Below are positions 192 to 59,067 of a DNA stretch of 64,000 bases, one piece after another. The stretch covers positions 1 through 64,000 of the forward strand of contig JABMCL010000022.1 of NCBI GenBank assembly GCA_018857735.1, written 5' to 3'. Within the stretch, counting starts at the first letter, position 1, and each line of letters opens with the position of its first letter. This DNA is from Alviniconcha marisindica. Taxonomy: Eukaryota; Mollusca; Gastropoda; Provannidae. The position numbers and the translations under genes are program-made. The notes below the pieces were generated by a model. That model was not told where the DNA came from. It was given only the letters and a program-made list of their open reading frames with translations, and did no database searches.

Positions 192-368
192 ACATACAAT
201 GACAGTCGTTACCTAGAGGCAGCAGAGCGTTGCTGTGAAGTGACCTGGCATCGTGGCCTGCTGAAGAAAGGTTATGGTCTCTGTCATGGGGCTGCTGGCA
301 ATGCCTATGCCTTTCTGGCATTGTTCCGTCTCACTCACAACCAAAAACATCTCTACAGAGCTTGCAAG
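192..368 (+). CDS. LANCL: LANCL gene A, exon equivalent to exon 7
   Basis: The exon has 177 bases in phase 0 to 0, with acceptor CCCCAG at 186-191 and donor AAG|GTGAAT at 368/369. It encodes TYNDSRYLEAAERCC to YRACK, with the zinc ligands in GLCHG. It differs from 58891-59067 by one silent change (AAG/AAA, Lys) and one Asn/Ser change. Confidence 0.93.

Positions 369-59067: not shown

What the first reader, a model, noticed from the sequence alone, without database searches (positions are those of the whole stretch)
192..59067. Two tandem LANCL genes share one exon at 175/177 identity although both flanking introns are unrelated
Exon 192-368 and exon 58891-59067 differ at two sites (one silent, one Asn/Ser). 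The bases immediately outside, on both sides, show no similarity at all, and intron 7 differs as well. Neutral divergence that erased the introns should have changed many third positions. Exon-confined gene conversion, or strong constraint at the RNA level, would explain it. A simple recent tandem duplication, an alternative exon of one gene, or a collapsed haplotype would not, because a stop codon (5110) and a new start (25812) separate them.
Basis: partly seen in the sequence, partly recalled or inferred. Interest (0 to 1): 0.75.

Follow-up and report, generated by a model that had tools for sequence, protein, structure and literature searches.

The report
Exon copied between ancient snail genes
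Two neighbouring, long-diverged copies of a snail LANCL enzyme gene carry one almost identical exon between unrelated introns, most likely because that exon alone was recently copied from one gene into the other.

Summary
Exons 192-368 and 58891-59067 match at 175 of 177 bases; the differences are codon 25 AAG/AAA (silent) and codon 50 AAC/AGC (Asn/Ser). Similarity stops at the splice sites, and the adjoining flanks score no better than shuffles.

The genes are not recent copies. Caenogastropod snails carry two old LANCL paralogues, called alpha and beta here. Exons 1-6 of the downstream gene (B) are alpha (ultrafast bootstrap 100; beta placement costs 91.6 lnL). Exons 8-9 of the upstream gene (A) are beta (bootstrap 91; alpha placement AU p=0.026, SH p=0.057). 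The two exon 7 copies are sisters and lean to beta.

Best reading: a recent interlocus gene conversion limited, as far as visible, to exon 7, probably beta into alpha. Whole-gene tandem duplication, a carried-over intron, or preserved silent sites do not fit.

Direction is favoured, not proven. Exons 8-9 of B and 1-6 of A lie outside the window; reads could not be examined. A published annelid case (Capitella Dlx, PMC3199776) is close: a new member of a known kind.

The parts
192..368 (+). Gene A (LANCL-beta) exon 7, 59 codons, phase 0-0; likely donor
   Evidence: 175/177 to B7; Pfam LANC_like E 1.7e-15; acceptor ctccccag, donor gtgaat
1911..1983 (+). Gene A exon 8
   Evidence: splice sites and phase; beta favoured by 7.2 lnL
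5036..5112 (+). Gene A exon 9 with stop TGA 5110-5112
   Evidence: beta favoured by 6.9 lnL
25812..25883 (+). Gene B (LANCL-alpha) exon 1, start ATG
   Evidence: alpha favoured by 4.0 lnL
32877..32994 (+). Gene B exon 2
   Evidence: alpha favoured by 7.0 lnL
34095..34314 (+). Gene B exon 3
   Evidence: alpha favoured by 30.9 lnL
45064..45208 (+). Gene B exon 4
   Evidence: alpha favoured by 10.4 lnL
47837..47977 (+). Gene B exon 5
   Evidence: alpha favoured by 9.2 lnL
58526..58711 (+). Gene B exon 6, last exon with alpha signal before the switch
   Evidence: alpha favoured by 30.1 lnL
58712..58890 (+). Gene B intron 6, 179 bp, no similarity to the flank of A7
   Evidence: 109 of 200 shuffles reach the observed score
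58891..59067 (+). Gene B exon 7, inferred recipient of the transfer; own splice sites (tgtctcag / gtaagt)
   Evidence: Pfam LANC_like E 4.3e-15; leans to beta by 6.1 lnL, AU p of alpha placement 0.154 when tested alone
59068..64000 (+). Start of gene B intron 7; no further exon 7, 8 or 9 of either paralogue found here
   Evidence: 47 exon queries, lowest E 0.025

Best explanation
The window holds exons 7-9 of a LANCL-beta gene (A) followed, about 20 kb on and on the same strand, by exons 1-7 of a LANCL-alpha gene (B). Shown: alpha and beta are paralogue groups older than the split of the caenogastropods sampled; the visible exons of A and B other than exon 7 belong to different groups; exon 7 is nearly identical in both, and the sequence next to it is not. 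Inferred: a recent interlocus gene conversion overwrote exon 7 of the alpha gene with the beta sequence. The introns are unrelated, so exon 7 is an island of homology. Strand exchange and the repaired tract could fill the island and had to stop at its edges, which are the splice sites. The recipient kept its own introns and splice signals. Whether the template was the neighbouring gene or a spliced cDNA cannot be told. The exon encodes the GYGLCHG segment of the LanC-like fold (its role in zinc binding is recalled), so alpha now carries beta's version of that segment.
For: 175/177 identity ending at the splice sites; adjoining flanks no better than shuffles. Exons 1-6 of B in alpha: ultrafast bootstrap 100, beta placement worse by 91.55 lnL, each of the six exons favouring alpha. 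Exons 8-9 of A in beta: ultrafast bootstrap 91, alpha placement AU p=0.026. For exon 7, with the other snail sequences held to paralogue groups, a tree with B7 in alpha and A7 in beta is rejected (AU p=0.003, SH p=0.022); both in alpha AU p=0.037; both in beta AU p=0.164, not rejected. 28 of 28 four-fold sites are equal. Linked alpha/beta pairs elsewhere: Pomacea C0Q70_09726/09727 and Batillaria BaRGS_030843/030844 have consecutive numbers; both Littorina genes lie on a contig of the same length.
Against: Direction is only moderately supported. Tested alone, B7 prefers beta by 6.1 lnL (alpha AU p=0.154) and A7 by 7.9 lnL (alpha AU p=0.135); 'both in alpha' fails the AU test but not the KH or SH test (p=0.068, 0.078). 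In the free exon 7 tree the alpha and beta sequences of other snails do not separate, so exon 7 is a poor guide to group. Alpha placement of exons 8-9 of A likewise passes KH and SH (p=0.057). The tract fills essentially the whole homology island, and before conversion that island was probably only about 73-88% identical in protein (other species), poor ground for homologous recombination. Exons 8-9 of B and 1-6 of A are not visible. Third-position GC is not raised. The two Nucella genes lie on contigs of different length, so linkage is not shown there. Reads and the rest of the assembly could not be examined.
Confidence: 0.8

Rival explanations
1. Assembly or polishing artefact: the beta exon 7 sequence was written into the alpha locus (or the reverse) by misjoined or mismapped reads.
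For: The window begins with 12 G, 191 bp before exon A7, which looks like a contig end. No reads could be inspected, and the tool for the own assembly did not complete.
Against: Two differences remain between the copies, one silent and one Asn/Ser; plain copying by software would give none. Both copies have their own, different splice signals and introns. The window has no N.
Confidence: 0.08
2. Extra exon: a copy of beta exon 7 was inserted into the alpha gene, whose own exon 7 lies beyond 64000, perhaps as an alternative exon.
For: Gene B is cut by the window end, so a further exon 7 cannot be excluded.
Against: No alpha exon 7 found in the 4.9 kb after B7. B7 sits 179 bp after exon 6 in phase 0-0 with a good acceptor and a gtaagt donor. 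An exon-precise insertion without flanking intron would have to land between ready-made splice sites.
Confidence: 0.06
3. Constraint on silent sites (RNA-level function) kept exon 7 alike since an old duplication.
For: Exon 7 is the most conserved exon between paralogues also in Littorina and Nucella (86% and 75% protein identity); in Pomacea exon 9 is slightly higher (75% against 73%).
Against: A7 differs from Littorina beta at 4 of 59 residues and B7 at 5 of 59, and A7 and B7 share residues such as His at position 20, seen in none of the 12 other caenogastropod sequences used. A frozen sequence would not have moved in parallel. Silent sites of relatives could not be compared, as no DNA of them was available.
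Confidence: 0.03
4. Recent tandem duplication of the whole gene with later replacement of introns.
For: Two LANCL genes on one strand about 20 kb apart.
Against: Outside exon 7 the visible exons fall into two old groups: exons 1-6 of B alpha, exons 8-9 of A beta.
Confidence: 0.02

Closest known systems
Capitella teleta Dlxa/Dlxb homeobox conversion (PMC3199776; abstract and passages seen)
   Same: Linked, otherwise quite divergent paralogues share a short conserved segment at 98.4% nucleotide identity including silent sites; explained there by gene conversion (GENECONV tract of 150 bp).
   Different: There the pair is tail-to-tail and the first 12 bases of the intron are identical too; here the genes are in tandem on one strand and identity ends at the splice sites on both sides.
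Yeast whole-genome-duplication duplicates with concerted evolution restricted to coding sequence (review PMC3924837, passages seen; it cites Evangelisti and Conant 2010, which is not held and was not read)
   Same: Coding parts homogenised, non-coding parts hard to align.
   Different: There the coding region of a number of duplicates; here a single exon of a nine-exon animal gene whose neighbouring exon 6 has kept its old divergence.
Primate red and green opsin genes (PMC3924837, passages seen)
   Same: Tandem pair in which converted and unconverted segments alternate between exon and intron.
   Different: The reverse pattern: introns converted, exon 5 kept different by selection.

Membership tests
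LanC-like (LANCL) protein family | LANC_like profile match | tested here: met
   PF05147 E 1.7e-15 and 4.3e-15 for the two exons, 56.9 and 55.6 bits against cutoff 23.2
LanC-like (LANCL) protein family | Similarity to solved LANCL1/LANCL2 | tested here: met
   6wq1 (LanC-like protein 2) E 1.2e-22, 3e6u (LanC-like protein 1) E 3.5e-20, residues 2-59 of exon A7
LanC-like (LANCL) protein family | Enzyme activity | not testable with these tools
   Needs protein
Interlocus gene conversion | Tract nearly identical between paralogues that are divergent outside it | tested here: met
   outside exon 7 no exon is visible in both genes, so coding divergence is shown through orthologues, intron divergence directly
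Interlocus gene conversion | Phylogeny of the tract conflicts with that of the rest | tested here: met
   placement of B7 in alpha with A7 in beta rejected, AU p=0.003, SH p=0.022
Interlocus gene conversion | Donor and recipient identifiable (non-reciprocal) | tested here: inconclusive
   Beta as donor favoured by 6-8 lnL, not significant with each copy tested alone; both in alpha AU p=0.037 but SH p=0.078
Interlocus gene conversion | Raised third-position GC | tested here: not met
   GC3 0.46-0.47 in exon 7, 0.29-0.58 in the other exons; a frequent companion, not a requirement (recalled)
Recent whole-gene tandem duplication | Other exons and introns similar too | tested here: not met
   Adjoining introns unrelated; visible exons belong to different old groups
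Mutually exclusive alternative exons of one gene | Both copies between the same flanking exons | tested here: not met
   A7 is followed by exons 8-9 and a stop upstream of the ATG of B

The most novel reading that the evidence does not exclude
Exon 7 is a lasting conversion island in caenogastropod LANCL pairs: it is overwritten again and again in separate lineages, across unrelated introns, perhaps from spliced cDNA, and each event keeps the island similar enough for the next. The protein data hint at this (alpha-beta identity of exon 7 is highest within the species for Littorina and Batillaria), but not for Nucella or Pomacea, and 3 of 24 label permutations reach the observed sum. A tree with the other snails in clean paralogue groups is not rejected (AU p=0.164).
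Probability: 0.2. Interest if true: 0.55.

Novelty: new member of a known kind. Interest (0 to 1): 0.38.

Why it matters
If true, a 177-bp exon can be exchanged between paralogues that split before ampullariids, cerithioids and littorinids separated (neogastropods too, a placement recalled for Nucella and Babylonia), although the adjoining introns can no longer pair. Such events mislead gene trees and dating if exon 7 is used, and they bear on how little homology conversion needs in molluscs. If it recurs in sister species, the pair is a natural test of whether conversion here uses the neighbouring gene or cDNA.

Tried and rejected
Recurrence of conversion in other snails: four species with both paralogues (Littorina, Nucella, Pomacea, Batillaria) were compared exon by exon. 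Exon 7 shows a same-species excess (mean 0.805 against 0.775), reached by 3 of 24 permutations; the other segments gave 2 of 6 (exons 1-3, three species), 11 of 24 (4), 16 of 24 (5), 1 of 6 (6, three species) and 7 of 24 (8-9). Suggestive only; exon 6, with 1 of 6, is as extreme as its three species allow.

Single gene in rotated order: the window holds exons 1-7 of B and 7-9 of A, which together read as one LANCL gene. Rejected because exons 1-6 are alpha and 8-9 beta.

Crossover in an intron, or conversion running into an intron: rejected because both adjoining flanks are unrelated. One weak score (3 of 40 shuffles, intron 7A against the whole tail) was not pursued.

Missed exons: 47 exon peptides of relatives were searched against 59068-64000 and 1-191. 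The tail gave nothing below E 0.025. The 191-bp head gave 11 rows at E 0.5 or below; the lowest were Littorina beta exon 8 (19 residues, 32%, E 2e-4) and the unnamed alpha P0002 exon 7 (20 residues, 35%, E 0.006), with three other alphas at the same place as the latter. I judged these chance: short, weak, and exon 8 of A is at 1911. They were not tested further.

No paper on this LANCL case was listed; several were narrow term searches and one search showed 10 of 88, so absence from print is not shown. Passages of PMC3449122 and PMC5755908 and the abstract of PMC5865164 were also seen and carry no part of the argument.

Full report
Observation. The two exons were compared base by base: 175 of 177 agree, with one silent difference (codon 25, AAG/AAA) and one Asn/Ser difference (codon 50, AAC/AGC). 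A self-comparison of the window gives the pair as 189-370 against 58888-59069, the exon plus the CAG and GT of its splice sites. The adjoining flanks score no better than dinucleotide-preserving shuffles: 113 of 200 shuffles reach the score of the 5' flank, 109 of 200 that of intron 6 of gene B against 1-188, 142 of 200 that of 500 bp of 3' flank; for intron 7A against the whole tail it is 3 of 40. dS is 0.025 on 40.0 silent sites, upper bound about 0.15, and 28 of 28 four-fold sites are equal.

Anatomy. Splice sites and phases give exons B1 25812-25883, B2 32877-32994, B3 34095-34314, B4 45064-45208, B5 47837-47977, B6 58526-58711, B7 58891-59067, and A7 192-368, A8 1911-1983, A9 5036-5112 with the stop at 5110-5112. 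Apart from exon 7, each LANCL exon was found once in the window. Exon 7 matches Pfam LANC_like and the solved LanC-like proteins 1 and 2. The window starts with twelve G, 191 bp before A7, and may be a contig start.

Two old paralogues. A search with the joined protein, a second with Littorina P0007 and a third with the exon 6-9 part gave two groups in caenogastropod snails: alpha (Littorina P0001, Babylonia P0003, Pomacea P0005, Nucella P0006, Batillaria P0019, unnamed P0002 and P0004) and beta (Littorina P0007, Nucella P0008, Pomacea P0010, Batillaria P0050, unnamed P0009). Pomacea is an ampullariid, Batillaria a cerithioid and Littorina a littorinid, so the duplication is older than their split. 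In exons 1-6 all alphas and betas together stand apart from the other molluscs used with ultrafast bootstrap 96. In Pomacea and Batillaria the two genes have consecutive numbers (09726/09727; 030843/030844, the former put with alpha by eye); the two Nucella genes are on contigs of different length.

Placement of the window's exons. In exons 1-6 the alpha group including B has ultrafast bootstrap 100 and the beta group 100; in exons 8-9 the beta group including A has 91. Forced into beta, exons 1-6 of B lose 91.55 lnL, each of the six exons contributing (4.0, 7.0, 30.9, 10.4, 9.2, 30.1). Forced into alpha, exons 8-9 of A lose 14.1 lnL (AU p=0.026; KH and SH p=0.057). In exon 7 the two copies are sisters (92) and sit beside Nucella beta and Littorina beta with weak support (64 and 47); the alphas and betas of other snails do not separate in this short exon. 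With those others held to paralogue groups and compared with the free tree, B7 in alpha with A7 in beta is rejected (AU p=0.003, SH p=0.022), both in alpha fails the AU test (p=0.037) but not KH or SH (0.068, 0.078), both in beta is not rejected (AU p=0.164). Tested one at a time, B7 prefers beta by 6.1 lnL (alpha AU p=0.154) and A7 by 7.9 (alpha AU p=0.135). So the exchange is well supported and its direction, beta to alpha, is likely.

Why not constraint or duplication. A7 is 55/59 and B7 54/59 identical in protein to Littorina beta, and they share changes such as His 20, which none of the 12 other caenogastropod sequences used has. The exon has moved, and moved together in both genes. A recent duplication of the whole gene would leave both copies in the same group outside exon 7, which the visible exons are not.

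Mechanism. Because the adjoining introns share nothing, exon 7 is an island where the two genes could pair. A tract that stops where homology stops gives identity up to the splice sites without any role of splicing. A spliced cDNA as template would give the same picture, and the data do not choose. The recipient kept its own introns: 179 bp of intron 6 and a gtaagt donor. An additional inserted exon is less likely, since no alpha exon 7 was found within 4.9 kb downstream and exon-precise insertion between ready splice sites is improbable, but gene B runs out of the window.

Recurrence. Within-species alpha-beta identity of exon 7 is high in Littorina (86%) and Batillaria (88%), but not above cross-species values in Nucella or Pomacea; 3 of 24 permutations reach the observed sum. 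No claim is made.

Known cases. Capitella Dlxa and Dlxb, divergent linked genes, share their homeobox at 98.4% with silent sites conserved, explained by gene conversion (PMC3199776, abstract and passages). A review reports yeast duplicates whose concerted evolution is restricted to coding regions, and the opposite pattern in primate opsins (PMC3924837, passages). The snail case belongs with these; its distinctive point is one exon in a tandem pair with both borders at the splice sites.

Limits. The window's own assembly could not be searched: 12 of 12 identical requests were unanswered. No DNA of relatives was available, so comparisons with other species rest on protein. Exons 8-9 of B and 1-6 of A are unseen. 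The species is not identified; the nearest protein to the joined query is Littorina saxatilis alpha at 73%.

Noticed in passing
36071-37861 (+): Reverse transcriptase (RVT_1) reading frames in two pieces, E 3.1e-11 and 2.4e-15, inside intron 3 of gene B: probably a decayed retroelement.
   Followed up: no
9110-9534, 38639-39088, 43085-43379, 63181-63602: A dispersed repeat of about 76-89% identity between copies; one copy holds a tRNA-like match at 39020-39078 on the minus strand (33.6 bits), so possibly a SINE.
   Followed up: no
1-12: The window opens with twelve G, 191 bp before exon A7; possibly the start of a contig.
   Followed up: no
P0019 and P0201 (Batillaria attramentaria predictions): Both predicted alpha proteins lack exon 6 compared with the window and other alphas; perhaps annotation or assembly gaps.
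   Followed up: partly
63105-63164: A near-perfect inverted repeat (60 bases, 96.7%) beside the last dispersed repeat copy.
   Followed up: no
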